Below are positions 1 through 21,035 of a stretch of 64,000 bases of DNA, one piece after another. This DNA comes from Microbacterium sp. (GTDB lineage Bacteria; Actinomycetota; Actinomycetes; Actinomycetales; Microbacteriaceae): the NCBI GenBank assembly GCA_031277945.1, contig JAITLK010000001.1, positions 279,217 through 343,216 of the forward strand, in the 5' to 3' direction. Within the stretch, counting starts at the first letter, position 1. Each line of letters starts with the position of its first letter. The position numbers and the translations under genes were made by a program. The notes under the pieces are model-generated. The model was not told the DNA's origin. It worked only from the letters and a program-made list of their open reading frames with translations, and ran no database searches.

Positions 1-2
1 CC

Positions 3-941: not shown

Positions 942-1371
942 CCGCATTCTCGAGTCGTCTCTGAGTAACTGCGAGCTCTACGGCGTCGGCAGCGAGCTGC
1001 GCCGGAACGTGCTCCCAGAACCTGAGAACGGTCCATCCCGCGGCGGACAATCGCGCGTCCGTGTCGCGGTCGCGCTCGACGTTCCTGCGGAGCTTCTCGG
1101 CCCACCACGTGGCGTTCGACTTGGGCGAGGAGCCGTGTTCCGGGCATGCATGCCAAAAGCAACCGTCGACGAAGACTGCGATCTTCGTCGGGCCGAAGAC
1201 GAGGTCGGCACGACGGTTGAGACCCTTCAGCGGCCGAGCATCGACTCTGTATCGAAGCCCGCGCGCATGAAGGAGGCGGCGGATAGCAAGCTCAGGCGGA
1301 GTGTCCCGAGAGAGCGTGTTCCGCATCCGACGCGATGCGAGCTCGCTGGACGGCGGCGGACTGGGTTCCAT
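892..1371 (-). CDS. vsr: Very short patch repair (Vsr) mismatch endonuclease
   Basis: Vsr nicks next to T:G mismatches that arise when 5-methylcytosine deaminates, and so limits mutation at sites methylated by a partner C5 methyltransferase. The 159-residue length fits the family. The family core is visible: an N-terminal segment with MRNTLSRDTPPEL, then RADLVFGPTKIAVFVDG with conserved acidic residues near 56 and 69, then CFWHACPEHG with the conserved Trp-His at 73-74, and later a WTVLRFWEH segment. It is the third gene of a leftward operon after the methyltransferase and a nuclease-like gene, with a gap of only 3 bases after the latter. This arrangement supports a type II restriction-modification cassette making m5C. 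The last bases overlap the convergent partial gene. Confidence 0.93.
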   Translation of the reverse strand: MEPSPPPSSELASRRMRNTLSRDTPPELAIRRLLHARGLRYRVDARPLKGLNRRADLVFGPTKIAVFVDGCFWHACPEHGSSPKSNATWWAEKLRRNVERDRDTDARLSAAGWTVLRFWEHVPAQLAADAVELAVTQRRLENAATLVGRSPVTPQRGSP

Positions 1372-1374
1372 CGA

Positions 1375-2220: not shown

Positions 2221-2221
2221 G

Positions 2222-3526: not shown

Positions 3527-3637
3527 GCTCTCAACCCTACATTTTTCGATCGATGTTCGCCTTCGACACGCGCAACACGATGTGCGTCAATCGCGATGGC
3601 AAGCGGCTCCTCACGACCTTGCCGATAGCCTGGCAAC

Positions 3638-4495: not shown

Positions 4496-4630
4496 GCCCA
4501 GGCGCTCGTGCTGTCGTCAAGGTCCACGCTAGACTCGCGTCATCAGGACCCTGCGGCCGACACCGACACGCAGGGTTTTCCCTTTTCCAGCGGTGACATT
4601 GGCCATTTCGTCATCCTACAGAAACGACGA

Positions 4631-4661
4631 AACCCCGGAAAATCGTTGATCTTCCGGGGTT
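4631..4661. terminator. Hairpin terminator downstream of the tRNA-Pro scar
   Basis: A 10-bp inverted repeat (AACCCCGGAA / TTCCGGGGTT) with an 11-base loop is followed by T residues on the plus strand. It sits 2 bases beyond the tRNA-Pro 3' repeat, where the original leftward tRNA gene would have ended. It probably was the chromosomal terminator of tRNA-Pro before the island inserted, and now may also end the gene at 3638-4495. Confidence 0.75.
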
Positions 4662-4663
4662 TT

Positions 4664-4701
4664 TCGGTCGGGCTGACAGGATTTGAACCTGCGACCCCTT
4701 G
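4664..4701 (-). repeat. attL: 38-bp direct repeat, 3' part of tRNA-Pro
   Basis: Identical to 20958-20995. In tRNA sense it runs from the 3' side of the anticodon stem through the T-arm and acceptor 3' strand, plus 4 bases past the discriminator base. The sequence beyond 4701 does not continue the tRNA, so this is a scar left by integration at the 3' end of the gene. Confidence 0.92.
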
Positions 4702-5265
4702 GAGGATCCGGTTGATTTCCGGTCCCCGCCGATCGTCTCGGGAACTCACGGATTCCCTTGTGTTTACAGGGAACCGGGCGGTTCGCTTGGTACGAGTGTA
4801 GCCGGTTGGTGGCGAGTGATGGCGGGTGATCTAGATGGGTTCCTGATGGGTCGGGCTTCGGACTCGCGCCAAGAACAATTGACGGGCTCGAGTGGGATCC
4901 GGGATGGAGTGGCGGATCACTGAGAGTCCGCGTGTTTTCGCGGTTCCCATGGCGGTCTTTCTACGGAATGAGTACCGACTGATGACAGCCTTTCGGAGGA
5001 CTTCCGGTCACCGTTGTGGCCAGCGCACGATGTCAAGCTGCGCGGAGTCGTTCGGGCATGGGAAGTTGACATACGGCGCAGCGAGTTCGGAAGCCTCGAC
5101 CCGGCGAAGCGTCGCTAGTCGTGCGCATAGGGAGCCGCTATCGCGCAAAGCATCGAGCGGCGTAGACGCGCACTGGACGCACCACGCACGCTCAGCCACC
5201 CTTCCCTAGCGATCGCTTGCTGGACGGATGGACTGGTCGTTCGCGGGCTGTGCAACAGGGTGCTG

Positions 5266-8200: not shown

Positions 8201-8778
8201 AAAACCACCGTGCGCTTGTCGAACATCGGCAGCAGGAACCGTGTAGCCCATGCCTCCGTGATGTAGGCGCGGCCGAAATCACGATCCGTGACAATCAGCT
8301 CCTCGGGCGGGCGACGGACGGAACCATGCAAGTACACGAGGCCGGCATAGTCGGAACCGATGGGCAGTGCTGGGCTGTGCCAGACATCAACGGGGCTGAC
8401 GCCAGCGGCGGCGGCAGCAGTTTCGAGATGCAGGTCGAAGTTGGTCGTTACGACCCTGAACTTCCCACTCGTCGCCGCAAGCTGCGCGATAGCAGTGTGG
8501 GTGGGATTGAATTTTGGATTTCCGCTCATGATCTCGTCGCGCACGTGGCGTCGGGTGTCGAATCCCTCGGGAAGCGAACCGAGGAAAAAGTCGAGCCCTC
8601 CCTCCTTCGAGAACGGCACCGCCGCCTTCTCAGCCATGGCTTTCGCGAGGCCCTCGAACGAGGGCAGCTTCGACGGCGGGCCCATAGACGCTCCAGCCCC
8701 AACGAAGAAGACCAAGTCGCCCTCGGCATGCGCATCGACAACCGGCTGCGGGATCTCAACATCCCCCGTGATCCACAC
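5266..8778 (-). CDS. SIR2-domain protein, probable defence-associated sirtuin
   Basis: The frame extends to a TTG at 8793, but a GTG at 8778 has AGGGGG six bases upstream and is chosen, giving 1170 residues. The N-terminal 200 residues carry SIR2 NADase/deacetylase signatures: FFVGAGASMG (25-34) for NAD binding, TTNFD (111-115), YLHGS with the likely catalytic His151, and FVGYSHED (193-200). The remaining ~950 residues are a long, apparently helical region rich in short hydrophobic repeats without a motif I recognise. Large SIR2 proteins of this architecture (defence-associated sirtuins of the DSR and SIR2-DUF4020 kinds) abort phage infection by depleting NAD+. The function is inferred from the domain and the island setting. 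It is transcribed toward the left end of the island, alone. Confidence 0.82.
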   Translation of the reverse strand: MWITGDVEIPQPVVDAHAEGDLVFFVGAGASMGPPSKLPSFEGLAKAMAEKAAVPFSKEGGLDFFLGSLPEGFDTRRHVRDEIMSGNPKFNPTHTAIAQLAATSGKFRVVTTNFDLHLETAAAAAGVSPVDVWHSPALPIGSDYAGLVYLHGSVRRPPEELIVTDRDFGRAYITEAWATRFLLPMFDKRTVVFVGYSHEDTIMRYLALGLPSNTRRYAFTNDADDQKWEHLEITAIPYTLLGENDHSNLEDALTTWAQRARMGALEHDARVREIINGDSTTLPLPERDYLISQIKTEEGARRFAASTTEHRWLRWLEGTDIFKALFRGGPTATSSSVLAHWYSTFIENPETSDLALHTVQRLGRRFSDELLFSASLATEALFRVNPDLGSRWRVLLMTSIEGRTAPGDPGSALRFGRGGMSNTRAVVRSVLRPYLVLEQGWFPNSDNNYPPSADLGLPAKPRELHKIVTEHATSAESHDPRTLSFFEEALHSAYDLVAAYNGATEHASFRFSRSRIEDQPQHRIHHIDSMIDGLRIVGERLHHDMPDLPDRWWRFDRVLFRRLALHLIAEDTNRSSDEKVAWLTDRRTIFLSGVKHEVFRILADTVAEASAAQRAAILEEVRCGPQFPADVENVERHIAYSKFNVLVWITRAAPEWAEAAAELAAIRAEYPNFAEREAPDQDFTISTGTWGGVLPMEPNDFVGMVTSDGADAALSSVLARDYSERNFNEPTWDDALDLFGRAAREDPASGLELLEALHTIDDDKHQQIRNAIVSGWAEAVIDEAMRLRIIEALSEDAPVAGSPRPVAQFLLGQIRQIVDSGESASADSLRELAQRLLANSESDENGFPAEYDGLMLALNSWPGELATYWLTEIDRRWRSDRDGWGGLNADEAAALRTLLALPNLAAATAPAIARELFFLFAADEAFATNSVIPLFTDSTTMVGVWKAYLYGPRINDRMLQNGMFDALLSMWDRLSDLDDEPLIRRFLSLAASIATHAGITEAERRQLSFTSVTAQGGVHAPRFAEEVAQDLDSGAEDGETAWENWLHGHLENRLNGVPRDPDAAELAAWADVVPLLGTRIPEGIATFRGRAPAMNPDNLSIDIPTEALNAHGSAIVAFLAERVANSEPGNMMLAYQLHELIESLSESLSPEALAPLVAAARGKGYLLSEL

Positions 8779-9089
8779 TGAAAGCCCCCTCAAGATGTTG
8801 GCTCGCTCAACAACACTCTCCGCGAGGCGTCTGGGCCGAGGTGACGTCGGTTACCGCAGCGCCGAGCTCAATCGTAGCTACCCGCCCACGACACCCCAAG
8901 CCTCCGCCGCCGCGCACCAGTGTAGAGAAGGGCCGTCGGAAACTCGCGTCGCCCACGACTCTCTGGCCCGCACGTCCTGGGCGCCAGTAGCCATTCCGCA
9001 AGCAAGACCTAACGCGAGTCGAACCCGCGACGTCACGATCACCGACCGTTTCGCACAACGCGCACCAGGGGGACGTGTGAGGCAGATGC
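8779..9089. other. Intergenic gap between the SIR2 gene and the next leftward gene
   Basis: These 311 bases must contain the promoter of the SIR2 gene. The only visible oddity is at about 9005-9030: read leftward, the T-loop-like TTCGACT is flanked by CGCG on both sides, but a proper tRNA cannot be completed. I see no gene. Confidence 0.45.
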
Positions 9090-10076
9090 CTAAACGCTCT
9101 GGTAGATCGCCGAAAGAGACCTGGCACCAGTGCGAAGATCCGACTCTGCCTGCTCGATATCGCCGAGACTAATCAAACCCGAATACGTTAACTCCGCCTT
9201 GAAGCCCAGTTGCTGTCCCGCCTTTACGATGGTTGCCTGCAATCCTGCAAGTGCTGCGTGGCGGAATCGTAGTTGGAAGCGGCGGAATCGTAGTTCGCGC
9301 CATAACACGTAGGGTTCGAGCATCTCGTCGGTGAACAGGTTGCGGCCGGTCCACCCGATCTCTCTTGTTGCGGTCAGGAGCAGCCTTTGAGTCGCGGATC
9401 GGTGTTCTTCCACGCTGAAACTGGCGCCAGCTGCACCGGCGTTCGTAAGCATGTCAACAGACACGAACTGCTCGGCCGCAGCTGCGCGAAGGACGGTAGC
9501 GACACTGCTCACTAGCCTGCGCATTTCAGGATCGATGTCAATGTGGACGAGGTTCTCGCTCTCCAGGGGGAGGTAGTGCAGTCCATCCGGGGTCGTGAGC
9601 GCGCTAAGGGCAGCGGGAACGTACTGAATCGCTTTGCCCCCACGTTCAGAGAGTGTCCGCGGCTCGACTCGTTCGATCCTGAAGGCGACAGGTTGATCAC
9701 CGTTGTCCGCTGGGCAGAGGTAGTCGATCTCGTACGTGGCGGGACCAAACAGGAGCGTCCGAACGGCGTCCTCAACGAACGTGCGGACACCGTCCCGCAG
9801 GGTCCGCGCAGGGCCGTAAAGGGACGGCAGCGCCTGCCTGATCAGATCTTCAACCTGGGCGTCGTCTGCCTGGACGGTCACGGTGAAGCCGTTGTCGAGG
9901 TCCCTCCCGTAGGGAAGGACGTGGCTGAGGTCATCGGAGAGCATTCGCAGGTAAAAGCTCTCGTCTTCGTCGTCGTCCAGAAGCGCGGTCAGAGCGGGGT
10001 CATCTTCGACCGTCTCGTCGTACACGGCTCGCGACGACCGCGTGCTGATCAGCTGGTCATGCTCGTCATCATCCAC
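9090..10076 (-). CDS. Unrecognised protein coupled to an upstream membrane protein
   Basis: The frame is open further upstream, inside the preceding gene. The likely start is a GTG at 10076, which overlaps the upstream stop by 8 bases and is preceded by GGAGAGGGG at good spacing; this gives 328 residues. The N-terminus is very acidic (about residues 2-40). The middle has alternating strands with segments such as DAVRTLLFGPATYEIDY and AIQYVPAAL and a region ending ENLVHIDID. This faintly recalls phage portal or Mu gp29-like proteins, but I cannot claim homology. There is no signal peptide or membrane helix. The tight overlap with the 10069-12621 gene suggests equimolar production and a joint function, perhaps defence given the island. 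Confidence 0.7.
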   Translation of the reverse strand: MDDDEHDQLISTRSSRAVYDETVEDDPALTALLDDDEDESFYLRMLSDDLSHVLPYGRDLDNGFTVTVQADDAQVEDLIRQALPSLYGPARTLRDGVRTFVEDAVRTLLFGPATYEIDYLCPADNGDQPVAFRIERVEPRTLSERGGKAIQYVPAALSALTTPDGLHYLPLESENLVHIDIDPEMRRLVSSVATVLRAAAAEQFVSVDMLTNAGAAGASFSVEEHRSATQRLLLTATREIGWTGRNLFTDEMLEPYVLWRELRFRRFQLRFRHAALAGLQATIVKAGQQLGFKAELTYSGLISLGDIEQAESDLRTGARSLSAIYQSV

Positions 10077-12621
10077 GAGGGTTCCCCTCTCCACGGATTC
10101 GTTCGAGCTGATCGAGGAGCATCGTCGTGTTACGGGGCAACGTTGCATCTTCATCAAGGTGCCCTCGCAGATACTCGGCGATGAACAGGTCAGTCGCGTC
10201 CCACGAGAGTCTCGCTCGCTCCCGGGCGAACGCAGTGACGATCGCGCTGGCGTGTGCTCGAGGTATCGGGGCGCGTCGAGAGCGGAACAGGCCACGTTCT
10301 GGTGCCGCGATACCGCGTTCTGCGAAGAGATGACCGAGCCGTTGCTGTCGCGAGGTCCGAGCAAGTCCCCCTGCTATCGCCGACGGTGTGGACTCCAGAC
10401 CGATCATGATGTCGACGATGCTCTGCGCTAGCACTCCGGTGGTGCTGGCCGCGATCGACGCGTTCCAGATCTTCCGAACATCTTCCCAGATGCCGGTACC
10501 GTCCAGCTCCTGCATGAGAAGCGCATAGCCGCTAAGTTCTACCAGCGTCACCAGCGGTTCGACAATCCAGACGAACTTCATATCTCCCGACGCATCGTTC
10601 AAATCTGCGCGAAGCCGCTCCCGCACCGCATCAGTCTCGATGAAGACCACTCTGAACAGCTGCCGCGCTACATCCGCACGGCCGGTAAGGATGGTGTCGA
10701 ACGTTGAATCGACCAGGATCCGATAAGTCTGACCGAACAAGTCGGGCTGATCCGAGCTGTGCGAGGGCTCGTGCAAGTGTGGAATACATGCCGCGAGTTG
10801 GCGCAGAAGATCCTCATCGAGCTGCTGAGTGAACGCCGTGCCGTCAGGCGCCTCGGGCCAGGATTCGTCAGCGGTCTCCGCGTGCCGCAGTGTGCTGAGG
10901 CGAGTGAACGCAGAGTCAATCGAGGCATGATGTGACCGCATCTTCGAGACCAGCTCGCGCGCCGAGATGACCATAACCGCAGCATGGGCGAATCGGCCCT
11001 CGTCGATCTGATGTTGAATGAGCGACGTCAGCTGCGGTTCGATACCGCGGATGAGGGTGTGATAGCTACTGAGCACAGCTCTCGCGAACTCGCGAGCACA
11101 CACATGGTGTATCCACCACGTTGGCGTGATGAGCTGCCCTTCGGCCTCCCGCTCACGTACCAGACTGGCGGCGATCTTCGCGAGCTGGACGACGACAGGC
11201 CGCGGCAAGACCACTTCCGACGGCGGCGCGGGGTCGGCTACCGCGCGGTCGAAGGCGCTGGCGAGATCATCCTCGGCGAGAGTCCGCACCGCATGCACAT
11301 AGCCGAGCCAAAGATCGGTCATCGAGGAGATACTGCGCTCCGCAGCCGCAAGAGTATTCAGTTGTACCTGCTGGCCGCCGCCTGGCTGCTTCTTGTCGTC
11401 ATCCACGGCGTAGACCATTGCCTCCGTGAACGTTTTCGCGAACAGCAGTGCCTCCTCGATTTGCAGACGGGAGCCAAGTAGCTTCACGAGTGGACTGCCG
11501 CGATCGGCGAGTTCTACGGCGGTCGCATCATGCCCGTCTCGGATCAGTGAGGTGAGAAGCCGGTTCAGGGCATCTGTGATTCCTCGTTCCACCCAGAGCG
11601 GATCGGGCTCCAGCGCAGGTGTGACTCCGGTCGATGTCGCCAGCGCCATGCTCAGGCGATGGTGGTCCAGAGTGAGCCAGTTCGGGTGAGACGGTGTGAC
11701 TCCCCACCAGTCACCGGTTGTGGGAATCGAGCCCTTGGCGTTTGCATAGCGGGCTGAGATGCTGAGGAGCTGGTTGGCGACACGGCGCGAAGCGGAGGGT
11801 TCTGACGCCTGCTCCTGAGACAGCAACACCGTGATCTGTCGGTAGAGGCGAAGCACTTGGGATGCCTCATGGTGGGCTATCACCAGGTTGGCCTTGTCCG
11901 AGGCGGTTGCAGGCGTCGTCACGCGACGCAGTGCTCGATCGAATCGCGCAGGCAGGGCCTGGCTGAGTGTGGACGGGTCGAAGAAGTTGAAGAGCTTGTT
12001 GCCCAACAGCATCAGCCTAAGCACCGCGTTGAGTGACAGCAGTCCCAGGACAACTATGCTCACCACGCTGAGCTCTCGCACGAATGCACCGACCAGCAAG
12101 AGGAGCACCCCGAACACGAGGGCGCGCACCACGCCTCGGACGTAGATCACGCTGCTGCGTTCCTCGATGAAGAGCGTGCGGATTTCTGCGGGAACCGACC
12201 GGTAGGTAGTCGAGGCCACTACGCCGACCGTTGTGAAGAACAGCGCGAGGAAAGTGGCCGTGGCGGTGACCGACGCACCGATGAGAGTCTGGTATGAGTT
12301 GGGTTCAAAGCGTCGGCTGAGTTCGCCCAGGGGGCCGGGAAGGTATGCCGCGCCCCATGCGAGGACTTCGCACACCGCGACCAGAAGAGCAGCCGACAGT
12401 GCCGGCCACACCGACCGCTTGGCAAGAGTTGCTGCGATCCCGAGATCGCGCTGCTGGTCTTCCAGACCACCCCGAAGACGCTGCCCACGAATGGAGCGCT
12501 GTAACTCGCGGCGAGACCGATGTTGTCGTTTCGTCCAGTAGCGCAGGGTCCCGAGTTCTCGAAGCCGGGCAGCGGTGCGCTTGGCCGCTGGATCGCCGCG
12601 GCGACTCATCACGTCGTCCAT
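10069..12621 (-). CDS. Large membrane-anchored protein, four N-terminal helices, unknown function
   Basis: A frame of 865 residues runs from a GTG at 12666; the first ATG, at 12621 (850 residues), is used here, and neither start has a clear ribosome binding site. In the long numbering, hydrophobic helices lie at about 86-109, 127-151, 177-198 and 200-223, after an 85-residue very basic cytoplasmic segment. The ~640-residue remainder is soluble, helix-rich and lacks motifs I recognise. The first part resembles the general layout of DUF2254-like membrane proteins, but this is only a likeness. It is the first gene of a two-gene leftward unit with the 9090-10076 gene, overlapping by 8 bases. A membrane effector in a two-component defence system is one reading; a transporter-like role is not excluded. 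Confidence 0.75.
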   Translation of the reverse strand: MDDVMSRRGDPAAKRTAARLRELGTLRYWTKRQHRSRRELQRSIRGQRLRGGLEDQQRDLGIAATLAKRSVWPALSAALLVAVCEVLAWGAAYLPGPLGELSRRFEPNSYQTLIGASVTATATFLALFFTTVGVVASTTYRSVPAEIRTLFIEERSSVIYVRGVVRALVFGVLLLLVGAFVRELSVVSIVVLGLLSLNAVLRLMLLGNKLFNFFDPSTLSQALPARFDRALRRVTTPATASDKANLVIAHHEASQVLRLYRQITVLLSQEQASEPSASRRVANQLLSISARYANAKGSIPTTGDWWGVTPSHPNWLTLDHHRLSMALATSTGVTPALEPDPLWVERGITDALNRLLTSLIRDGHDATAVELADRGSPLVKLLGSRLQIEEALLFAKTFTEAMVYAVDDDKKQPGGGQQVQLNTLAAAERSISSMTDLWLGYVHAVRTLAEDDLASAFDRAVADPAPPSEVVLPRPVVVQLAKIAASLVREREAEGQLITPTWWIHHVCAREFARAVLSSYHTLIRGIEPQLTSLIQHQIDEGRFAHAAVMVISARELVSKMRSHHASIDSAFTRLSTLRHAETADESWPEAPDGTAFTQQLDEDLLRQLAACIPHLHEPSHSSDQPDLFGQTYRILVDSTFDTILTGRADVARQLFRVVFIETDAVRERLRADLNDASGDMKFVWIVEPLVTLVELSGYALLMQELDGTGIWEDVRKIWNASIAASTTGVLAQSIVDIMIGLESTPSAIAGGLARTSRQQRLGHLFAERGIAAPERGLFRSRRAPIPRAHASAIVTAFARERARLSWDATDLFIAEYLRGHLDEDATLPRNTTMLLDQLERIRGEGNPRG

Positions 12622-13175
12622 CGCACCGTCAGCGTGTGACTGACGCTTCCTGGCGGAGCGCAGCACCAGCTGCGCTCACACACCAGGATCGCCGTCATGA
12701 CCCAAATCTACGCGTGCGAGGACTCCCGACACCGCGGCGTAACGGCGTGGCGTCGACCCCCGGTCAGCGCCGGCAGCGATTCACCGGCTCAGCACATGGG
12801 TCCTCCGGAGCCGAGAACCTTGAAGCTCGACGCCCTACCCGCGGCTTGTCTCGCGACGAGCGCCCGGACTGACTTGGAGCGGTGGACGAAGCGCGACGCC
12901 GCTGCCACTCAATGGTCGACGGACGGTTGCCACCGACACGCCGCCCTCGGCACCGACCTGCGCCAACGTCATTCCCTCCAGGTACAACTCCGTCGCACGC
13001 TCCGCTCCCGCCATTCAGGCTGCTGCCCAAGGAAATCGATCCTGAGACTGGGGGCCGATCTTCATTCGGACCGTCCGCATTTGGTCTGCCCTCGACCACT
13101 CGCTTGAGCACACCTCAACTCCACTCGCCGCGTCTTTTCTCTTGCGATGACAGCGGCCCGTGATGAAATACGACT
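12622..13175. other. Intergenic stretch between divergent island genes
   Basis: About 550 bases separate the leftward membrane-protein gene from the rightward DUF4365 gene and should carry both promoters. It also holds a short leftward helix-turn-helix frame (12835-13014). Other frames here have no recognisable content. Confidence 0.5.
12835..13014 (-). pseudogene. 59-codon helix-turn-helix remnant or micro-gene
   Basis: Reading leftward from an ATG at 13014, immediately after an in-frame TGA, gives 59 residues ending at a TAG. The first 45 read as a resolvase/transposase-type helix-turn-helix: ELYLEGMTLAQVGAEGGVSV, then ATVRRPLSGSGVALRPP. The pattern of Glu-Leu-Tyr, Gly, Val, Gly-Val-Ser, Thr-Val-Arg and Arg-Pro-Pro is typical of the small DNA-binding domain at the C-terminus of serine recombinases and of tiny stand-alone HTH proteins of actinobacterial islands. 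No catalytic domain precedes it, so it is probably the leftover end of a recombinase or transposase gene. An intact small regulator cannot be excluded. Confidence 0.5.
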
Positions 13176-16100
13176 GTGGCCTCCCAGATTGCGACCGAGC
13201 TGACGAACCGGCGATCCGTCGCGCTCACCGAGACGGTCGTACTTGACAGCCTCGGGTGGCTGTTCCGCAGTCAGGAGACGAGCGACTTCGGCATTGACGC
13301 ACACGTCGAAATCACGACAGACGAACGGGCAACAGGGGAGCTCATAGCCCTGCAGATCAAGGGCGGGTCCAGCGCGTTCAAGACTCCGACCGAGGACGGC
13401 TGGTACTTTTCGGTCACCGCTAAGCACGCCGATTACTGGCTCAATCACTCGCTGCCTGTGCTGCTGGTGCTGGCGGATCTCGATTCGAGTCGATGCTTCT
13501 GGCAAGTCATCGATTCGAACACCTTGGAGTCAACGGGCAAGAACTACAAAGTCCTCGTACCGCGGGTGAATGACGTTTCCGCGGCGTCAGACGAGTGGCA
13601 AGGGCTCACTCGTAGATACCTTGAAAACACAGACCTGCTTTACGAGACGAACAGCCAACGGCTGCCGCCCGCCTCAGTCGTTCGACTTGACGAGCTTCGG
13701 AAGACGGACTCGCTCGCCGCGGCCTCCCTCGCTGCGGACCTTGCAGCCGGGCGGGGCAATCCCCGGGAGGCGATAGCGGAGCTCGTGCGATCTCGGCGTA
13801 CGTGGCTAGACCGGCATGGTGTGGTCGCATGGGCAGTGGTCGCGCTCTACGCGCGCGACCATGGCCTTTTCCGGGAGGCTGCGGACGCCTTCGTCCATCT
13901 CGCCGATCTTCGTCCGGAGAGGCGCGCGACCAATCTCGGCGATGCGGCTCTCATGCTGTTAAACATCGACGACGCTAAGGCACTCAAGCTCGCCGAGTCC
14001 GCGTACGCTCATGACCCATCCGACTCTGCCGCGCTCGTCGCGATGGCGTTCCTCCGACCTGACGATGCGCACTTTGCAGAGGAGCTCGAAGGGAGGGTCG
14101 ATCTGCGTTCGATCGCCTACTTCGCCAACATGGCCTCCCGTCGTGGAGAAGACTCCGACGCCATCCGCTTGTTCACGTCGGTCTTGGATGGGTCCAACGA
14201 GCAGAGTGGGGTGCGCGTTGAGCTGTCCAGGCTCTATTGCCGACGGTATATCTCCGCCCACTCCAACCCGGGCGATTTGAAGGCAGCCCGCGACTTCGCC
14301 TTCGAGGCGCTGACAGCCCGACGGCGGTGGACGAACGCGACAGACGGCGCACTTGCCGCGTACGCGCGTACGCTGGCTCTCGACTCGAGATATGACGAAG
14401 CACTGCAGACAGTCACGCGGCCACCAACCGGAACCGCGTCCAAGACTGAAGCCGAGTCGGCGGAGGTCGCGCTCATCGCCCTTGACGTAGCACGCCGTCT
14501 TGAGCGGTTCGACCTACTTCCGGGGATCGTCGAAATCATCGCCGACCCGACCGATCGTGAGCTAGCAGCTGAGGAGGCGCGGCTCTCACAGGGTGCCACG
14601 CGCGAGGAGCTCATCGCTCACGAACGAATGATGCTCAGCCGCGCCCTTGACGCCCGCGACGCGCAGATGGCTTTTCGAGCCGCGCTGAATCTCGCACTGT
14701 ATGGGATAGACGAGAGCGTCCAGATGACCGAGTTGGAGCCGCTGAAGGCATACGTCCAACTGGTCAGAGTCATTGCAGCCACCCGCGAGGATCCCACTGG
14801 CAACCTCCCCAAGCTCCGCTCGCTTGCAAAGACCGAGATCACCGCCGCCGAGCTAGTCATCCAGGTCCTCATCGACCTTGACCGTTATCAGGATGCCGCC
14901 GAAGCCTGCGACCTGTACTTCGCGATCTTCGCGAACGCCTCGTTCATCTCGAGCAAGGTGAAGGCGCTGTTCCTCAATGATGACAAGGAGGGCGCGCTGG
15001 CGCTGCTCAACGATGCCCTCGCCAAGAACTTGCTCGCGGGCCAGCCCCAGTACGAGGCGCACCGGCTGCTGGGCCAGCACTATGCCGACCTCCGGCAGTG
15101 GGAGCTAGCAGTCCATCACTTCCGTGAGCTCATCGCACAGTCGCCCGTCCTCCCTCGTGACGGATTCTGGAATCTGCTGCAGTGCCTGGTCGCAACGGGA
15201 GACCCCGTGGGCGCCCGTGGGCTTCTCGACGAGCTTCGCGTGGATCCGGAGACGGAACCCGAGATCATTATCTGGTTACGAGTCGTGGCTGCGACGGGCT
15301 GGACGGAATCCACCGCCAGCTTCGCGGTAACGCTCTCCCTCTCGGAAGGGATCACTCCGCAGCTGGCCACGTCTTTAGTAGGAACGGTCATCCTCGATAC
15401 CCAAGGGACGCCTCCGTCTGGCGAGGATGATGGTTCTCGGCCTGGCGATGCTCGTCCCCTCGTGAACGGAGACATTCATCGCCAGGCGTTCGAGGTGATG
15501 CAGGATCTCATCGACGAACATAGGGGCCACCTCGCCATCCGCAGCATCGATGCGGACGTAGGCACTCTCATCGACGAGCTGAAGCAGACGTTTCCGCCGG
15601 AGAGAGTGAAACCGCTGCGCGCGCTCGCTCGTCAAGTTGCCGCCGGCACTATTCCTATCGGCTTCATCAGCGAGGTTCGAAACGACCCGTATGGGCTTCT
15701 GCTGGCGGGGAGATACCGTCAGGCGCGGATCGCGTCCTCACCGGATTCTGCCGACCACGCGAGCGAGACCGACGCCGCGCTCGCCGCTCTCAACGGGCGC
15801 GTCGTCGTCGATCTGTCGGCAGTGGAACTCGCCATCCACCTGGATGCGTGGAGCGAGTGCGAGGGCCAGTTCAACGTCGTCGCAATCTCCACCGCGCAGC
15901 GCACCGATGCTCAGACGTCGGTGGCCACGGCTCGGAGCGCGACCGGTTCGGGCGGAACCCTCGGAGTCGACGCCGATGGAAACCCGTACATGACCGAGTT
16001 CGACCCGGCCGCGCAGATGGCGACGCTTCGTCGATGCCAGGACGTCGAACAGGCCACCCGCGGTCTGCATACGATCGACGTCGGAGATGAGCTTACCTTC

Positions 16101-16823
16101 GCGAACGCGTTGAACGGTCTTGGCCTGTCAACCTGGGTGACGTCTCTCGAAGCAGCCGGCAGACAAGGGGTTGCGCTATGGTCGGACGACCTGGCGCAGC
16201 GACAGCTTGCGAAGGATCTCGGCATCCCAACCTTCGGCACCGTCAACCTACTCGAAGGTCTTCGCTTCTCTCGCCTCGATGAGCCAGCCACCGGCGACTC
16301 CGCGGACGAAGTCTACGAAGAACAGCACGCGTTCGTTCGGCGTCTTCTGGAAATGCGCGTTGTCGACCAGCCCGTGACGGTGGACGACCTCATCGAGAAC
16401 ATTGCTCAACATCCCGGCAACCTAGCGCCAGCGTCCGACGTCATCGCTCGAGCCGCGTGGTGGCGGACGGAGGCACCGGCTGAAGGATGGACCCGGGTCC
16501 TCCAGGCGGTGCGGCTCCACGCTCCGGACTACCTCCGCGTCTGGCAGGCGCGTGCAATGAGCGGGATCCTGATTGCGGCGCCGGCTGAAGCCGCGCCTCG
16601 CCTCGTTGCCGCCTTGGCGGTCCAGGGGACCTTGGCGCAAGTTTCCGTCGCTGACGTTGTCGAAGGCTTCCGCGTTGGCGACCAGGTGTGCACTCACCAT
16701 GAGCTATCCCCGGCATCAGCGCACATCGCCTGGGCGGTCACCGCGGTCGCGAGCAAGCGGGACGGGCTCGATCTCGAGGAGTTCACGGCGCAGATTCTCG
16801 CGGGGCTCCCGTCGCCTGACTGA
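13176..16823 (+). CDS. DUF4365 nuclease-like domain, TPR-like middle, PIN-like C-terminal segment
   Basis: The 1215-residue protein starts at a GTG. Residues 1-150 match the DUF4365 layout, a PD-(D/E)XK-like fold: E19 in the first helix, DFGID (37-41), ALQIKGGS with Q60 and K62, then YWLNHSLPVLLVL. Residues ~180-780 are helix pairs with TPR-like spacing (repeated A/L/G/Y patterns). A PIN-like segment follows at about 876-1030: it begins VVVDLSAVEL with D879 and contains WSDDLAQRQLAKDLGIPTFGT with D1004 and D1005, very like the second acidic cluster of PIN nucleases. The last ~180 residues are helical. Two nuclease-type modules on one repeat scaffold suggest a defence effector, by inference. 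It converges on the serine recombinase gene. Confidence 0.78.
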   Translation: MASQIATELTNRRSVALTETVVLDSLGWLFRSQETSDFGIDAHVEITTDERATGELIALQIKGGSSAFKTPTEDGWYFSVTAKHADYWLNHSLPVLLVLADLDSSRCFWQVIDSNTLESTGKNYKVLVPRVNDVSAASDEWQGLTRRYLENTDLLYETNSQRLPPASVVRLDELRKTDSLAAASLAADLAAGRGNPREAIAELVRSRRTWLDRHGVVAWAVVALYARDHGLFREAADAFVHLADLRPERRATNLGDAALMLLNIDDAKALKLAESAYAHDPSDSAALVAMAFLRPDDAHFAEELEGRVDLRSIAYFANMASRRGEDSDAIRLFTSVLDGSNEQSGVRVELSRLYCRRYISAHSNPGDLKAARDFAFEALTARRRWTNATDGALAAYARTLALDSRYDEALQTVTRPPTGTASKTEAESAEVALIALDVARRLERFDLLPGIVEIIADPTDRELAAEEARLSQGATREELIAHERMMLSRALDARDAQMAFRAALNLALYGIDESVQMTELEPLKAYVQLVRVIAATREDPTGNLPKLRSLAKTEITAAELVIQVLIDLDRYQDAAEACDLYFAIFANASFISSKVKALFLNDDKEGALALLNDALAKNLLAGQPQYEAHRLLGQHYADLRQWELAVHHFRELIAQSPVLPRDGFWNLLQCLVATGDPVGARGLLDELRVDPETEPEIIIWLRVVAATGWTESTASFAVTLSLSEGITPQLATSLVGTVILDTQGTPPSGEDDGSRPGDARPLVNGDIHRQAFEVMQDLIDEHRGHLAIRSIDADVGTLIDELKQTFPPERVKPLRALARQVAAGTIPIGFISEVRNDPYGLLLAGRYRQARIASSPDSADHASETDAALAALNGRVVVDLSAVELAIHLDAWSECEGQFNVVAISTAQRTDAQTSVATARSATGSGGTLGVDADGNPYMTEFDPAAQMATLRRCQDVEQATRGLHTIDVGDELTFANALNGLGLSTWVTSLEAAGRQGVALWSDDLAQRQLAKDLGIPTFGTVNLLEGLRFSRLDEPATGDSADEVYEEQHAFVRRLLEMRVVDQPVTVDDLIENIAQHPGNLAPASDVIARAAWWRTEAPAEGWTRVLQAVRLHAPDYLRVWQARAMSGILIAAPAEAAPRLVAALAVQGTLAQVSVADVVEGFRVGDQVCTHHELSPASAHIAWAVTAVASKRDGLDLEEFTAQILAGLPSPD

Positions 16824-16950
16824 TCGACCCTATCCAAAGAACATGAGCCCACTCGTGAGGCGATCAGCACTGCGCAGGCAGAAGAGGCAGGTTCTGGTGG
16901 CTGCGTGAGGCCGTGAAGATATTCACGGCGGCGCTCGATTTCGGACATAG

Positions 16951-18537
16951 TCACCGGGATTCCGCGAATGGAGGGAGAACATCTCCGCTGACCGTGGCAT
17001 CGGCCTGGACGTTGATCTCGTCGAAGAGGGTTCGGCAGAGCGTACGTTTCTCGTCCTCAGTGCCGGTGTTGAAGCGTTGGTCAACGTTCTCGAGCTGGTC
17101 CAGCGCCTCCGTGATCTGTGAAGCCACGTGCCGCGTCTGCTGCGCGATGACGGTGAGCTGTTGCGCGATGCCGAGGAGTTCCCGGCGGATGCGGCCTTGC
17201 TCACGCTTGAGCATGTCGGTGCTAATCGCATCGACGTAGTAGGCGCGGAGCACACGCTCCTGTTCCCCACGCAACTCCTGCTCGCGCTCCTGGAGTCCCG
17301 CCCGTCCAGCGTCGGCCTCATCCAGGCCCGCATTGGATCCAGCGAGAAGCCGCTCCTCCACGCCCTGCCGATCCTCCGGGGTGAGGCTAATCTGTTCGAT
17401 CAATCGATGCACGGCCTTCTCGATCAGATGCACCTGCTGCGCTCTCAATGTGCAGGTAGTGCGGCCGCTGTGTCGGCCGAGGCACACGAAGTAGAAGTAC
17501 AGCGTCCCCCGGTTGTTACGCGTCCGGTTGTACATCATCGACGACCCGCACTCCCCGCACTTGAGCAGCCCCTTGAGGTAGTGGGTGTGCACGTCGCGGG
17601 TGCTCGTGTTCCGCCTTGCGGTGAGCGCATCCTGCACCCGCTGCCACAACGCCGGCTCCACGAGCGGTTCGTGCGTACCGGGGTACTCGACACCGACATA
17701 GGTAACGACCCCGCAGTAGTACGGGTTCCGGAGCATCTTCTGCAGCGAACTCACCGTCAATGTCCGGGGCGGCTTCCCTGCTCTGGATGCGAGGGTAAAC
17801 CCGAGCTGAGTCATACCGCGGGCGAGGCGATCAAGGCTCCACTCCCCTGTCGCGTACATCGTGAACGCCCACCGGATGATCTGCGCACGCTCCTCATCCA
17901 CTTCCACGATCCGCACCTCACGACCCTGCGCGTCGAAGGTGCGCACGTTCCGGTATCCGACCGGCGCGCGGTTCGGGGTGCCGCCGCGCATGGCCTTCTG
18001 CCGGAGCCCCTTGCTGACCTCGGTGGCGAGGTTGCGGGAGTAGAACTCCGCGATCGACGCCATGATCCCGTGCACCAGCCTTCCCGACGGCGACTCATCG
18101 ATCGCCTCGGTACTCGACACCAAACGGGCACCCGCGTCGGCGATCGCCTGCGTGATCTGCACGTCATCAGCACGGTTCCGGGCGAGCCGGTCGAGCTTGT
18201 GCACGACCACGATGTCGACCCGGTTGGCACGGATCCACTCGAGCATCTCCGTCAGCGCCGGACGCGCAGCAGAGCGCGCTGACTCACCGGCATCGACGAA
18301 CTCCTTCACCACCCACGCACCGAGTCCGTACGCGGTCTTCCGGTTCGCCTGCCGCTGCGCCGGGATCGAGAACCCCTCCCGCTCCCCCGCACGCTCCGCC
18401 TGCTCCCGGGTAGACACCCGCAGATACGACACCGCCCGCAACACCAGATCCGGCGAACCAGACGGCCCATCGACGTAATCGAGAAGGACCACGGATGAGG
18501 GCGAAGGAGCGGACGGAGCGACGGCAAGCAGCGACAT
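16951..18537 (-). CDS. Large serine recombinase
   Basis: The frame opens at 18675; an ATG at 18537 is preferred (528 residues), preceded by GGAGAA at rather long spacing. The resolvase catalytic domain begins AVSYLRVSTREQ, with the nucleophile Ser42, and contains the HKLDRLARN helix and the SGRLVHGIMASIAEF segment. A recombinase domain follows, then a zinc ribbon CGECGSSM with a later Cys pair, and a coiled-coil tail rich in Glu, Gln and Arg. This is the architecture of site-specific integrases and transposon resolvases that cut and rejoin DNA through a 5'-phosphoserine link. It sits inside an island that already has a tyrosine integrase, next to an internal tRNA-Ala scar. It may come from a second element that merged with this one. 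Confidence 0.92.
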   Translation of the reverse strand: MSLLAVAPSAPSPSSVVLLDYVDGPSGSPDLVLRAVSYLRVSTREQAERAGEREGFSIPAQRQANRKTAYGLGAWVVKEFVDAGESARSAARPALTEMLEWIRANRVDIVVVHKLDRLARNRADDVQITQAIADAGARLVSSTEAIDESPSGRLVHGIMASIAEFYSRNLATEVSKGLRQKAMRGGTPNRAPVGYRNVRTFDAQGREVRIVEVDEERAQIIRWAFTMYATGEWSLDRLARGMTQLGFTLASRAGKPPRTLTVSSLQKMLRNPYYCGVVTYVGVEYPGTHEPLVEPALWQRVQDALTARRNTSTRDVHTHYLKGLLKCGECGSSMMYNRTRNNRGTLYFYFVCLGRHSGRTTCTLRAQQVHLIEKAVHRLIEQISLTPEDRQGVEERLLAGSNAGLDEADAGRAGLQEREQELRGEQERVLRAYYVDAISTDMLKREQGRIRRELLGIAQQLTVIAQQTRHVASQITEALDQLENVDQRFNTGTEDEKRTLCRTLFDEINVQADATVSGDVLPPFAESR

Positions 18538-18760
18538 GCGGGATGGGAACTTTCTCCGGCGCACCGGCCGGGCACGAGAAAGGCCCCGCAGATGCGGAGC
18601 CCCACCCAGCATGCCCACCACGCGCCCGAGCCCCGGTTGAGCGTCCCCGTTAAATCCAATGCGCAAGGCTGTCACTCACGTCCGAAACGCGAGAAAACTG
18701 CCAGAAACAACGCGAAACGGCCAAGAATCGGCGTGAGACAGCACCCAAACAGGCCGAAAG

Positions 18761-18784
18761 CCTCCAACTCTAAAGAGTTGGAGG
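18761..18784. terminator. Hairpin next to the tRNA-Ala scar
   Basis: A perfect 10-bp inverted repeat (CCTCCAACTC / GAGTTGGAGG) with a 4-base loop is followed by CTTT on the plus strand. Its place just past the 3' end of the tRNA-Ala fragment mirrors the hairpins beside both tRNA-Pro copies, so it probably was a tRNA terminator. Confidence 0.7.
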
Positions 18785-18795
18785 CTTTCCATGGG

Positions 18796-18837
18796 TGGAC
18801 CTAAGGGGAGTCGAACCCCTGACCTTCTCACTGCGAG
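18796..18837 (-). pseudogene. 3' half of tRNA-Ala(CGC), probable fossil attachment site
   Basis: Read leftward, the segment gives the end of an anticodon loop consistent with CGC, a TGAGA stem strand, an AGGTC variable loop, a T-arm AGGGG-TTCGACT-CCCCT with all five pairs, an acceptor strand TAGGTCC and discriminator A. The U at position 70 is the tRNA-Ala identity mark (G3:U70). Upstream of the anticodon loop the sequence does not pair to make a stem or D-arm, so the 5' half is absent. A cut in the anticodon loop with the 3' half retained is what tRNA-targeting integrases leave behind. No other copy is seen in this window. Confidence 0.75.
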
Positions 18838-19018
18838 CACGGCCTGCCAAGCTCACCGCCCATCGCTACCTGGCACCACTCGCCAGTCATCAGCCTCGCT
18901 CGTCCCGAGCGGCGGACCGTGGGCCCTTCACCGCTTCCATCAGAGCCTTGGGATGGCGGCCCGCACCTGTCGTTAAGGGCATGAACAAGACTCGCCCGAT
19001 GATCTAAGGAGAAGCAAC

Positions 19019-19285
19019 ATGCGTTTCGACAATGATGAGGCCCGGCTCCACACGGTGCGAGGATTCGCGTATCTCCTCGAGGACCGCGATCGCTGGGCGG
19101 ACTTCCTCACCGCAGCCGCACAGGAGGCCCCTGCGCTCTGGAGCTTCCTGAAGTTCGCGGCGGAGGCGTACGACCGGTTCTGGGAGAGCTTCAATAGCGC
19201 AGACGAGTTCACGCCTGAGCAGATCGTCGCCGAGTTGCAGGCAGTGCTCACTCATATGGCGAGTCTTGAGCGTTCCGAGCAGTGA
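19019..19285 (+). CDS. Small island protein of unknown function
   Basis: This 88-residue frame has an ATG preceded by AAGGAGAAG at ideal spacing, strong support for a real gene. The product is acidic and helix-rich with many aromatic residues (FLTAAAQEAPALWSFLKFAAEAYDRFWESF), no membrane helix and no motif I know. It lies between the tRNA-Ala scar and the convergent integrase gene, with 68 bases between their ends. Small acidic proteins near integrases may be anti-restriction, regulatory or toxin-neutralising, but nothing here decides this. Confidence 0.65.
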   Translation: MRFDNDEARLHTVRGFAYLLEDRDRWADFLTAAAQEAPALWSFLKFAAEAYDRFWESFNSADEFTPEQIVAELQAVLTHMASLERSEQ

Positions 19286-19353
19286 CATCCGACCCTCCGG
19301 CCAATCTCCCCTATGGGGTTCTCCGCTCTGAGCACCGCGGTGGAGAGCGGTCC

Positions 19354-20535
19354 TCACTCTTCCTTCAAGAAGACGCGATCCAGCATCACCGCGGTCGCCG
19401 GATTCACCATCTCGTTGCGGCGGATATAGTGCTGGATTGTGATCTTCGGATCAGTGTGCCCGAGTAGCTCGGCAGCAAGTTCCACGCCACCCTGGTCATT
19501 GATCGCGGTCGCAACGGTCCGACGGAACATGTGCGGGGTGACGCCGGTGATACCTGCGAGGTCGAGCACGTGCCGGAGCTGACGGCGCACGTTGTTGGTC
19601 GTCAGCGGAGTTCCTTCGCGGCTACAGAACAGCAGCGCGTCCAGCGATGAATTCTCCAGCCGTGTCATCCGGCGCCTCACAGCTTCTGCGGTAAAAGACG
19701 GGATCGCGACGGTGCGCCGAGACTTCGCGGTCTTCGGATGGTCCTGTCGCATCGTCGGCTCACCACGGTGGCTGACGATGGTCCCATTGATCCGAATCGA
19801 CGGCGTCGCGCTCGTGATGTCGACGTCGCGGCGACGGATGGCGAGCACCTCTCCGATGCGTGCCGAGGTGCCGAGCATGACCTCGATGATCGCGCTGAGT
19901 TGCCCGTCCGGGCGCGGCCCCGACGCAGAGTTCCCCGTCTCCCAGTAAGCGATCGCGGCGCGGATCGCGTTCACCTCGGCAGGTGTCAGCGCGTTCGGTG
20001 TCGAGGCGGGACGGCGGAGCCGCGAGACGTGGTCCATCGGGTTGCGTGGCAGTACTTCGTGCCGGACGGCGAGGCCGAGCGCGAGACGCAGGACCACGCG
20101 GGCCTGCTTGGCACGGTTGTAGCTCTGCTTCGCGAGCTGCTTGAGGAAGTGGTCGCAGCGGGCGACGCCGATCTCTCGCAAGGTGAGGTTCCCGAAGGCG
20201 GGCATGACGAGGGTCTGCATGTTCCGCTCATACAGCTCCAGCGTGCGCTTGGAGAGCCGGTCTTCCAGCTCCAGGTCTTCGAGCCAGTACGCGACCAGGT
20301 CCGGGAACGGGCTGTCCGGCGTGAGCGCCGAGGAGGACGGCTGGAAGAGGCTCCGGTCGGCGAGCTTCGCCTTCAACGCCCGCTCCGCGGACTTCCGCGT
20401 ATCCCCGGTCGCTTGGACGAGCCGCGTCTTCCCGTCCCAGTCGCGGTAGCGGGCGCGCGCGACAACACGACCGTTGGGACTCGCAAGGTAGCCGATCTCC
20501 CCGAAGGTCCCGATGGTCAAACGCTCTCGGCTCAT
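19354..20535 (-). CDS. int: Tyrosine site-specific integrase
   Basis: A 393-residue phage-type integrase. An arm-binding N-terminal domain (about 1-70) is followed by a SAM-like core-binding domain (75-175) and the catalytic domain, in which the active residues are visible: R226 (SARIGEVL), K271, HMFRRT with H335 and R338, H360 (LLGHTDPK) and the nucleophile Y370 (IQHY). It lies 426 bases from the intact tRNA-Pro and points away from it. With the flanking 38-bp repeats this identifies it as the enzyme that inserts and excises the island at the tRNA-Pro 3' end. It is 4 bases downstream of the excisionase-like gene and surely co-transcribed with it. Confidence 0.96.
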   Translation of the reverse strand: MSRERLTIGTFGEIGYLASPNGRVVARARYRDWDGKTRLVQATGDTRKSAERALKAKLADRSLFQPSSSALTPDSPFPDLVAYWLEDLELEDRLSKRTLELYERNMQTLVMPAFGNLTLREIGVARCDHFLKQLAKQSYNRAKQARVVLRLALGLAVRHEVLPRNPMDHVSRLRRPASTPNALTPAEVNAIRAAIAYWETGNSASGPRPDGQLSAIIEVMLGTSARIGEVLAIRRRDVDITSATPSIRINGTIVSHRGEPTMRQDHPKTAKSRRTVAIPSFTAEAVRRRMTRLENSSLDALLFCSREGTPLTTNNVRRQLRHVLDLAGITGVTPHMFRRTVATAINDQGGVELAAELLGHTDPKITIQHYIRRNEMVNPATAVMLDRVFLKEE

Positions 20536-20539
20536 CGGG

Positions 20540-20779
20540 TCACCGCCCGTCCGCCAGCGCGGGCGGCTCGGGGTCGCGTTGCTGCTCGATCCAGGTCCGC
20601 ACGTCCGAGAGCGCGAACTTCAGATGCTTGCCGAAGCGGTACGCGCGCGGACCGAGGCCGCGGGTGCGCCAGTCGTAGACCGTCGATACGGGAACGCCCA
20701 GGTAGGAGGCGAGCTCGCCGACGTCGAGCAGCGGCTCCAAGCCCCAGGGGGTGCTGGCCGGGCTGTGTTCGGTGTCCAT
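20540..20779 (-). CDS. Excisionase-like helix-turn-helix protein
   Basis: A MerR/AlpA-type winged helix is plain: LLDVGELASYLGVPVSTVYD, then WRTRGLGPRAYRFGKHLKF and LSDVRTWIEQQ. Such proteins bind element ends and steer the integrase toward excision, and often repress their own operon. The frame could begin at a GTG at 20809 (89 residues); I use the ATG at 20779 (79 residues), which lies inside a TTCGGT-N6-ACCGAA inverted repeat that may be an autoregulatory operator. The stop is 4 bases before the integrase ATG. Confidence 0.85.
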   Translation of the reverse strand: MDTEHSPASTPWGLEPLLDVGELASYLGVPVSTVYDWRTRGLGPRAYRFGKHLKFALSDVRTWIEQQRDPEPPALADGR

Positions 20780-20785
20780 ACCGAA
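20768..20785. promoter_or_regulatory. Inverted repeat over the excisionase start codon
   Basis: TTCGGT, six bases, ACCGAA: a perfect 6-bp dyad that overlaps the chosen ATG. With the stronger dyad at 20815-20839 it makes a plausible operator pair for control of the xis-int operon. This is inferred from symmetry and position only. Confidence 0.4.
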
Positions 20786-20814
20786 CAGGTGCGTCCTGCT
20801 CCCACCCACGAATC

Positions 20815-20839
20815 GGGAGCGACCGGCACGGTCGCTCCC
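20815..20839. promoter_or_regulatory. 10-bp inverted repeat upstream of the excisionase gene
   Basis: GGGAGCGACC and GGTCGCTCCC are separated by 5 bases, about 35 bases upstream of the excisionase start, without a T-run on the minus strand. It may be an operator or a site for the recombination proteins rather than a terminator. Confidence 0.4.
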
Positions 20840-20924
20840 CTACCGGAGCGCGGCGGCCCGAGCGGGCCGCGAGGGCGTCAAAGTGATGGGTTTTCGATGA
20901 CCGGATCACATCTCACCAACTAAA

Positions 20925-20956
20925 AGGTCCCGGAAACCCTTGAGTTTCCGGGACCT
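20925..20956 (-). terminator. Terminator of tRNA-Pro, brought in by the island
   Basis: A 13-bp perfect inverted repeat (AGGTCCCGGAAAC / GTTTCCGGGACCT) with a 6-base loop, followed on the minus strand by TTTT. It is 6 bases past the tRNA 3' end. Its sequence differs from the hairpin at 4631-4661, so the integrated element replaced the original terminator with its own. Confidence 0.8.
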
Positions 20957-20957
20957 C

Positions 20958-21035
<78 letters not shown>

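What the first reader, a model, noticed from the sequence alone, without database searches (positions are those of the whole stretch)
13176..16823. Single protein with DUF4365 nuclease-like, TPR-like and PIN-like parts
Seen: E19, DFGID (37-41) and QIK (60-62) at the N-terminus in DUF4365 order; TPR-like helices over ~600 residues; then VVVDLSAVEL (D879) and WSDDLAQRQLAKDLGIP (D1004, D1005) in PIN order. Known: DUF4365 is a PD-(D/E)XK relative found in defence genes; PIN domains are RNases. Inference: two nuclease modules on one sensor-like scaffold, in an island with SIR2, may be a single-gene anti-phage system not described before.
Basis: partly seen in the sequence, partly recalled or inferred. 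Interest (0 to 1): 0.72.

Follow-up and report, generated by a model that had tools for sequence, protein, structure and literature searches.

The report
Two-nuclease protein on mobile defence element
The gene encodes one large protein with a predicted DNA-cutting domain at the front, a helical scaffold in the middle and a predicted RNA-cutting domain near the end; it rides on a mobile DNA element and looks like a variant of an anti-virus system that has been predicted in print but, as far as I could find, not tested.

Summary
The 1215-residue ORF has a DUF4365 PD-(D/E)XK nuclease domain (Pfam E 1e-31), weak TPR matches and a PIN domain (PF20698, E 3e-8). Catalytic-type residues are kept: D37, D41, Q60, K62 in 13 DUF4365 rows; D879, D911, D1004, D1005 in 11 PIN rows. 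PF20698 is named for the TPR-GreA/B-C-PIN conflict system predicted by Kaur et al. 2021 (PMC8195603), where variable N-terminal effectors, REase included, sit on a constant core; so the kind is not new. What differs: the GreA/B-C domain, proposed to engage RNA polymerase, is undetectable here and in the TPR-PIN genes of 12 other genomes. The gene is cargo of a 16.3-kb element in tRNA-Pro; the element's right part recurs at 96% DNA identity in Compostimonas beside different left cargo, and the gene alone in Microbacterium ureisolvens. Neighbours of relatives match many more defence models than control stretches. Best reading: a stand-alone, autoinhibited abortive-infection protein whose scaffold senses the invader and releases a DNase and an RNase. 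Structure prediction was off, so the folds rest on sequence.

The parts
13176..16823 (+). DUF4365-TPR-PIN gene, 1215 aa
   Evidence: ORF; Pfam domains; full-length homologues in two other species
13209..13589 (+). DUF4365 PD-(D/E)XK nuclease-like domain, residues 12-138; D37, D41, Q60, K62
   Evidence: PF14280 E 1e-31; residues invariant in 13 rows; match to SPARDA DREN-APAZ structure 9jsb, E 2.3e-5
13593..15275 (+). TPR-like scaffold, about residues 140-700
   Evidence: weak TPR matches below Pfam cut-offs; aligned with distant relatives
15804..16214 (+). PIN domain, residues 877-1013; D879, D911, D1004, D1005
   Evidence: PF20698 34.4 bits over cut-off 27.8; four Asp invariant in 11 rows
13103..13175 (+). 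upstream stretch conserved with the gene (may hold its promoter)
   Evidence: blastn match of the M. ureisolvens copy runs from 13103 to 16824 only; no sigma-70-type promoter pattern was found in 12600-17000
4664..4701 (.). left att repeat, 38 bp identical to the right one
   Evidence: exact repeat found by script
20958..20995 (.). right att repeat, over the 3' end of tRNA-Pro
   Evidence: exact repeat found by script; tRNA
20960..21035 (-). tRNA-Pro(GGG), integration site
   Evidence: ARAGORN; same tRNA at the element end in L037
19354..20535 (-). tyrosine integrase of the element
   Evidence: PF00589 E 1.7e-22; 86.7% nt match at the same tRNA site in congener L084
20540..20779 (-). small HTH/excisionase-like ORF (79 aa)
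   Evidence: read by eye; the matching DNA on a Microbacterium plasmid is annotated as a helix-turn-helix protein next to a site-specific integrase
16951..18675 (-). serine recombinase
   Evidence: PF00239, PF07508, PF13408
5266..8793 (-). SIR2 protein, Dsr1-like, exchangeable cargo
   Evidence: PF13289 E 4.3e-17; PADLOC Dsr1 E 4.1e-46; no blastn match in L037
10069..12666 (-). unknown 865-aa ORF, exchangeable cargo
   Evidence: no significant Pfam or PADLOC family; no blastn match in L037

Best explanation
A stand-alone anti-phage (abortive-infection type) protein carried as cargo on a tRNA-Pro integrative element. It belongs to a branch of TPR-PIN conflict proteins that share a constant TPR-PIN body and exchange their N-terminal effector; here the effector is a DUF4365 nuclease. 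Proposed working: the protein is made in uninfected cells and held inactive; the TPR-like coil binds an invader-derived trigger; a change of shape or assembly then frees the DUF4365 domain to cut DNA non-specifically (as DUF4365-APAZ does in a short-Argonaute system) and the PIN domain to cut RNA, so the cell stops or dies before phage is released. Because GreA/B-C is missing, recognition is expected to rest on the TPR part and not on engaging RNA polymerase in the published way. Shown: domains by profile, conserved catalytic-type residues, purifying selection, stand-alone mobility, defence neighbourhoods of relatives, absence of GreA/B-C at profile level. Inferred: nuclease activities, autoinhibition, trigger, cell death.
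For: Both end domains over curated cut-offs. Catalytic-type residues invariant: 13 DUF4365 rows, 11 PIN rows; the Q-x-K motif is the one mutated in TmuRE (Q62A/K64A), whose complex then no longer cleaved DNA (PMC10810196, passages; matched by motif, TmuRE was not aligned). dN/dS 0.22 with every segment constrained. Single-gene unit: against the M. ureisolvens locus (10 kb held on each side) only 73 nt plus the ORF match. Same element with other left cargo in Compostimonas; related integrase at the same tRNA in a congener. Effectors change on the scaffold: DUF4365 (window, L037, L038), PNPase (L042), another REase-like N-terminus by eye in L061, whose scaffold groups with L059 (support 100). 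75 ORFs around nine distant relatives match 43 PADLOC models at E<=1e-15, including a type IV methyl-directed restriction enzyme, JetA, JetB, AbiD, RmrA and PbeA, against 7 models for 74 control ORFs. AbiTii (E 6.8e-28) lies beside the M. ureisolvens copy. GreA/B-C not found: 13 genomes, own included, up to E 10; profile-profile probability 0.2%.
Against: I found no phage, growth or nuclease assay for any member. TPR matches are below Pfam cut-offs. No structure model could be made, and the PIN profile has no significant match among solved structures (best E 0.066). No promoter pattern was found before the gene. Controls are one stretch per contig chosen by me, 41,909 aa against 33,343 aa of neighbours, and the calls do not tell how many distinct ORFs matched. 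Trigger and autoinhibition have no data behind them.
Confidence: 0.5

Rival explanations
1. It works as Kaur et al. 2021 propose for the full system: it acts on RNA polymerase that transcribes viral DNA and the PIN domain cuts the transcript, with the N-terminal effector as a fallback; contact here would use some other surface or a GreA/B-C domain too diverged to see.
For: The PIN is of the same Pfam family and the published proposal is for this core. The stretch between the last TPR-like helices and the PIN (144-164 residues from the W665 to the P827 column in 12 members) is long enough to house a 77-residue domain.
Against: No PF01272 match lies in a TPR-PIN ORF of 13 genomes up to E 10, while a GreA-type gene is found in each of them at E 1.8e-9 or better; profile-profile probability 0.2% against 99.9% for the positive control.
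Confidence: 0.2
2. It protects the mobile element rather than the cell against phage: it attacks competing plasmids or elements, or kills cells that lose the element.
For: It is cargo of an integrative element with its own integrase; a relative sits on a mobilizable plasmid and another next to conjugation genes.
Against: The M. ureisolvens copy is not accompanied by this element's recombinases within the 10 kb held on each side, and no small partner gene is part of the shared unit; neighbours of relatives include general anti-phage genes.
Confidence: 0.2
3. Only one of the two nuclease-like domains is catalytic and the other is a binding module.
For: Fused nuclease folds can serve as binders (general knowledge); the E19 position is not conserved.
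Against: D37, D41, Q60, K62 and all four PIN aspartates are invariant in the rows aligned, and both segments are under purifying selection.
Confidence: 0.1
4. A housekeeping RNA-processing or DNA-repair protein.
For: PIN and PD-(D/E)XK folds also occur in housekeeping enzymes (general knowledge).
Against: Rare in the samples searched, own genome counted (3 of 396 phylum genomes; 5 of 396 order genomes; 6 of 394 class genomes), on mobile DNA here, with exchangeable N-termini.
Confidence: 0.03

Closest known systems
TPR-GreA/B-C-PIN conflict system (Kaur et al. 2021, eLife 10:e70394, PMC8195603; Pfam PF20698)
   Same: PIN domain of the same Pfam family, TPR-like body before it, variable N-terminal effector (REase and PNPase are named there), stand-alone gene.
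   Different: No GreA/B-C domain detectable here or in the TPR-PIN genes of 12 other genomes or in the 12-member family profile, so the published RNA-polymerase step has no visible part. DUF4365 is not named in the main text (0 occurrences); the supplement could not be read.
SPARDA / DUF4365-APAZ short Argonaute systems (9jsb, 9qbq; TmuRE-Ago, PMC10810196)
   Same: Same DUF4365 domain family with the Q-x-K motif whose mutation abolished cleavage in TmuRE (passages).
   Different: PADLOC Aga_REase models match only residues 9-125 and Pfam shows TPR and PIN behind, no APAZ.
Single-protein PIN defence DS-3 (DefensePredictor, PMC13092281)
   Same: [quoted passage not shown] mutation of catalytic residues abolished defence (passages).
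   Different: Its PIN is split between the N- and C-terminus; DUF4365 does not occur in that paper (count in the listing). Not compared by sequence.

Membership tests
TPR-GreA/B-C-PIN conflict system | C-terminal PIN domain of PF20698 | tested here: met
   34.4 bits over cut-off 27.8, residues 877-1013; four Asp invariant in 11 rows
TPR-GreA/B-C-PIN conflict system | TPR repeats before the PIN | tested here: inconclusive
   TPR_16 E 2.8e-4 and three other TPR models, all below curated cut-offs
TPR-GreA/B-C-PIN conflict system | GreA/B-C domain in the constant core | tested here: not met
   no PF01272 match in the ORF at E<=1; none of 22 matches up to E 10 in 13 genomes lies in a TPR-PIN ORF, with a GreA-type gene found in all 13; hhalign probability 0.2%. 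A strongly diverged domain is not excluded
TPR-GreA/B-C-PIN conflict system | exchangeable N-terminal effector | tested here: met
   DUF4365 here, PNPase in L042, no Pfam effector match in eight others scanned; tree
TPR-GreA/B-C-PIN conflict system | stand-alone gene | tested here: met
   only 73 nt plus the ORF shared with the M. ureisolvens locus
DUF4365 (PD-(D/E)XK) nuclease | profile match with conserved D, D, Q-x-K | tested here: met
   PF14280 110.3 bits over 24.3
DUF4365 (PD-(D/E)XK) nuclease | DNA cleavage | not testable with these tools
   needs the purified protein
SPARDA short Argonaute | APAZ domain and short Argonaute partner | tested here: not met
   no APAZ match in the ORF; PADLOC Aga_REase models match only residues 9-125; no Argonaute match among the eight window ORFs scanned
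VapBC-type toxin-antitoxin | small antitoxin gene moving with the PIN gene | tested here: not met
   the unit shared with M. ureisolvens is 73 nt plus the ORF

The most novel reading that the evidence does not exclude
A GreA/B-C-free branch of TPR-PIN immunity in which one polypeptide holds sensor, DNase and RNase, recognises the invader through its TPR coil without RNA polymerase, and kills by cutting both DNA and RNA.
Probability: 0.25. Interest if true: 0.62.

Novelty: new variant of a known kind. Interest (0 to 1): 0.42.

Why it matters
If true, it would be a very compact form of immunity: one gene, no partner, two different nuclease activities and a swappable effector. It would also show that the TPR-PIN core does not need the domain on which the published mechanism (the only one I found) rests, which makes that mechanism testable by comparing members with and without it. 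Copies in three genomes, two of them 99% identical in protein and one 87%, give ready test material.

Tried and rejected
Considered and rejected: (a) 'entirely new system': the core is in print. (b) SPARDA: no APAZ. (c) VapBC-like pair: no partner in the shared unit. (d) A hidden GreA/B-C domain: not found by Pfam, whole-genome profile search or profile-profile alignment. A positive control from a real GreA/B-C-containing TPR-PIN protein could not be obtained: plasmid searches gave one further full TPR-PIN protein (Arthrobacter plasmid) and a partial match to a 423-aa ORF on a Streptomyces plasmid (fetched, ORFs listed, not taken further); the other nine records match the PNPase part only, and two of them were fetched without use; 0 of 299 genomes in the phylum of Acetobacterium matched. 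(e) Helix and strand propensities between TPR and PIN were computed; the differences are small and I draw nothing from them. (f) An empty integration site was not shown: the left flank 1-4665 has no blastn match in four congener loci. (g) Literature: searches for the system's names found no paper; one search (EAD10) found Kaur et al. 2020 and 2021 and one unrelated paper; searches (15 of 31 listed) showed, in their listings, no experimental test of this architecture. The library holds open-licence papers only and supplements were not available, so whether DUF4365 forms or GreA/B-C-less forms are in Kaur et al.'s tables is unknown. (i) A scan of viral contigs found no relative; phage and plasmid records match the DUF4365 end only (2 and 42 records, none covering 80% of the protein).
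Full report
What is there. The ORF at 13176-16823 (+) is open for 1215 residues from a GTG start. Pfam finds DUF4365 at 12-138 (E 1e-31) and the PIN domain 'PIN-TPR-GreABC' at 877-1013 (E 3.1e-8), both over their curated cut-offs, and weak TPR matches between them. The closest solved relatives of the first domain are DUF4365 proteins of short-Argonaute systems (9jsb DREN-APAZ, E 2.3e-5 for residues 1-150). A profile of the PIN region of 11 members has no significant match among solved structures: three weak ones, the best being 3ix7 (TTHA0540, E 0.066; recalled, not looked up, as a PIN protein), aligned over the C-terminal aspartate motif.

Are the sites real? In 13 DUF4365 rows D37, G39, D41, Q60 and K62 are invariant, while E19 is E in 6 of the 11 rows with a letter there (read by eye). 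In TmuRE, a DUF4365-APAZ protein, the Q62A/K64A mutant complex did not cleave DNA (PMC10810196, passages); I match this by the Q-x-K motif and did not align TmuRE. In 11 PIN-region rows, nine of them 12-25% identical to the window, six columns are invariant: P827, D879, D911, W987, D1004, D1005. Against the M. ureisolvens copy dN/dS is 0.22 overall and 0.16-0.29 in every segment, so the whole protein is being kept. Against L037 there are too few changes for the per-segment values (0 to 0.71) to mean much (same call).

Close relatives and the element. A scan of the genome collection (84,980 species, by the tool's description) with six 8-residue patterns gave 55 candidate stretches, of which three encode a relative: full-length copies in Compostimonas suwonensis (L037, 99% aa) and Microbacterium ureisolvens (L038, 87% aa), and a DUF4365-only match in Acetobacterium. 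Such a scan sees close relatives only. Window 13141-21039 matches L037 at 96% over 7.9 kb, and window 4668-4840 matches L037 3133-3305 at 93.6%; between 4841 and 13140 blastn finds nothing. These are the two ends of an element integrated in tRNA-Pro(GGG) in both genomes, flanked in the window by a 38-bp exact repeat (4664-4701 and 20958-20995). It carries a tyrosine integrase, a serine recombinase and a small HTH ORF (by eye). In the window the left cargo is a Dsr1-like SIR2 protein and unknown ORFs; in Compostimonas it is a Fic protein, a HEPN-like protein just below its cut-off, and unknown ORFs. A congener (L084) has a related integrase (86.7% over window 19348-20959) at the same tRNA, a weaker match (67.7%) to part of the serine recombinase on the other strand, and no match to the target gene in the 17 kb held. 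In the M. ureisolvens locus only the gene and 73 nt before it match the window; neighbours there include AbiTii and a TrwC-type relaxase. The gene is therefore a single-gene unit found in different mobile contexts.

Distant relatives. Searching the whole protein in 394 genomes of the class found 17 genomes with a match: the own one, 14 with the DUF4365 end only and 2 with the scaffold or PIN part only. Profile searches found the TPR-PIN core in 3 of 396 phylum genomes, 5 of 396 order genomes and 6 of 394 class genomes, the own genome counted each time, and in 0 of 299 genomes of the phylum of Acetobacterium. One more lies on an Arthrobacter plasmid. Of the 14 TPR-PIN proteins examined, only the window, L037 and L038 carry DUF4365. 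L042 carries a PNPase effector (PF01048, E 1.6e-13). Eight others have an N-terminus with no Pfam effector match (L012, L021, L022, L031, L040, L041, L058, L060). L061 has, by eye only, another PD-(D/E)XK-like N-terminus (no Pfam match) and a PIN region broken in two pieces. L059 was not scanned with Pfam. In a tree of the scaffold alone L061 pairs with L059 (support 100), whose N-terminus looks different by eye; deeper nodes are weakly supported (42-55 at three of them). So the N-terminal part is exchangeable on a constant body.

The known system. Kaur et al. 2021 (PMC8195603; [quoted passage not shown] They propose that GreA/B-C engages RNA polymerase so that the PIN cuts the transcript, with the N-terminal effector as the fallback. 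The window protein fits this plan except for GreA/B-C. I tested that in two ways. PF01272 was searched up to E 10 in 13 genomes that hold TPR-PIN genes (own included): a GreA-type gene was found in all 13 (E 1.8e-9 or better), and none of the 22 listed matches lies in a TPR-PIN ORF (the tool scores only candidates of a loose first look). A profile of 14 GreA-type C-terminal domains against 12 aligned family members gave probability 0.2%, while half of the GreA set against the other half gave 99.9%.

Defence context. 75 ORFs within 7 kb of the TPR-PIN gene in nine genomes, chosen mechanically (200 aa or longer), were scanned with PADLOC at E<=1e-15: 43 models were matched, of which 25 are shown, among them a type IV methyl-directed restriction enzyme (E printed as 0), JetA (1.7e-205), JetB, PDC-S19, AbiD, RmrA and PbeA. 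74 ORFs from one stretch on each of the same nine contigs, placed by me, matched 7 models (mad3, subtilase, three DpdF, PsyrT, BrxHI), best E 3.8e-27. The calls do not tell how many distinct ORFs matched, and several models can match one ORF. Pfam adds an Mrr-type nuclease gene in L021, a ResIII/PLD/DUF3427 helicase next to L040 and a conjugation gene near L058, but also a LacI-type regulator near L060.

Mechanism. I commit to a stand-alone, autoinhibited abortive-infection protein: TPR sensor, DUF4365 DNase and PIN RNase released on recognition of the invader. Shown: parts by profile, residues, selection, mobility, context of relatives, absence of GreA/B-C at profile level. Inferred: activities, trigger, autoinhibition, cell death. 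My confidence is about 0.8 for a defence or conflict role and about 0.5 for the stated mechanism.

Verdict. The interest lies in the loss of the docking domain and in the two-nuclease single-gene format with closely related mobile copies to test.

Noticed in passing
window 4664-20995: A 16.3-kb tRNA-Pro integrative element whose right part (target gene, serine recombinase, tyrosine integrase) is shared at 96% with Compostimonas while the left cargo has no blastn match; related integrase at the same tRNA in congener L084.
   Followed up: yes
window 5266-8793 (-): 1175-aa SIR2 protein, Dsr1-like by PADLOC (E 4.1e-46).
   Followed up: partly
window 9090-12666 (-): Two overlapping ORFs (865 aa with hydrophobic N-terminal stretches by eye, and 424 aa) without any significant Pfam family; possibly further unknown cargo.
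   Followed up: no
L012, L021, L022, L031, L040, L041, L058, L060, residues about 1-165: TPR-PIN relatives have an N-terminus that looks helical and partly hydrophobic by eye and has no Pfam match; possibly an uncharacterised effector or adaptor domain.
   Followed up: no
L042:8791-13407 (-): 1538-aa protein with an HTH, a PNPase effector, the TPR-like body and the PIN domain.
   Followed up: partly
L059:670-4491 (-): Large helicase-like ORF near a TPR-PIN gene that by eye resembles Cas3; not tested.
   Followed up: no
L061:10385-13765 (-): TPR-PIN relative with another PD-(D/E)XK-like N-terminus by eye and a PIN region in two pieces about 1.4 kb apart, probably a decaying or interrupted copy.
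   Followed up: partly
L037:3805-9945: Alternative cargo of the same element: Fic and HEPN-like proteins and three unknown ORFs (714, 442, 217 aa), candidates for further defence genes.
   Followed up: partly
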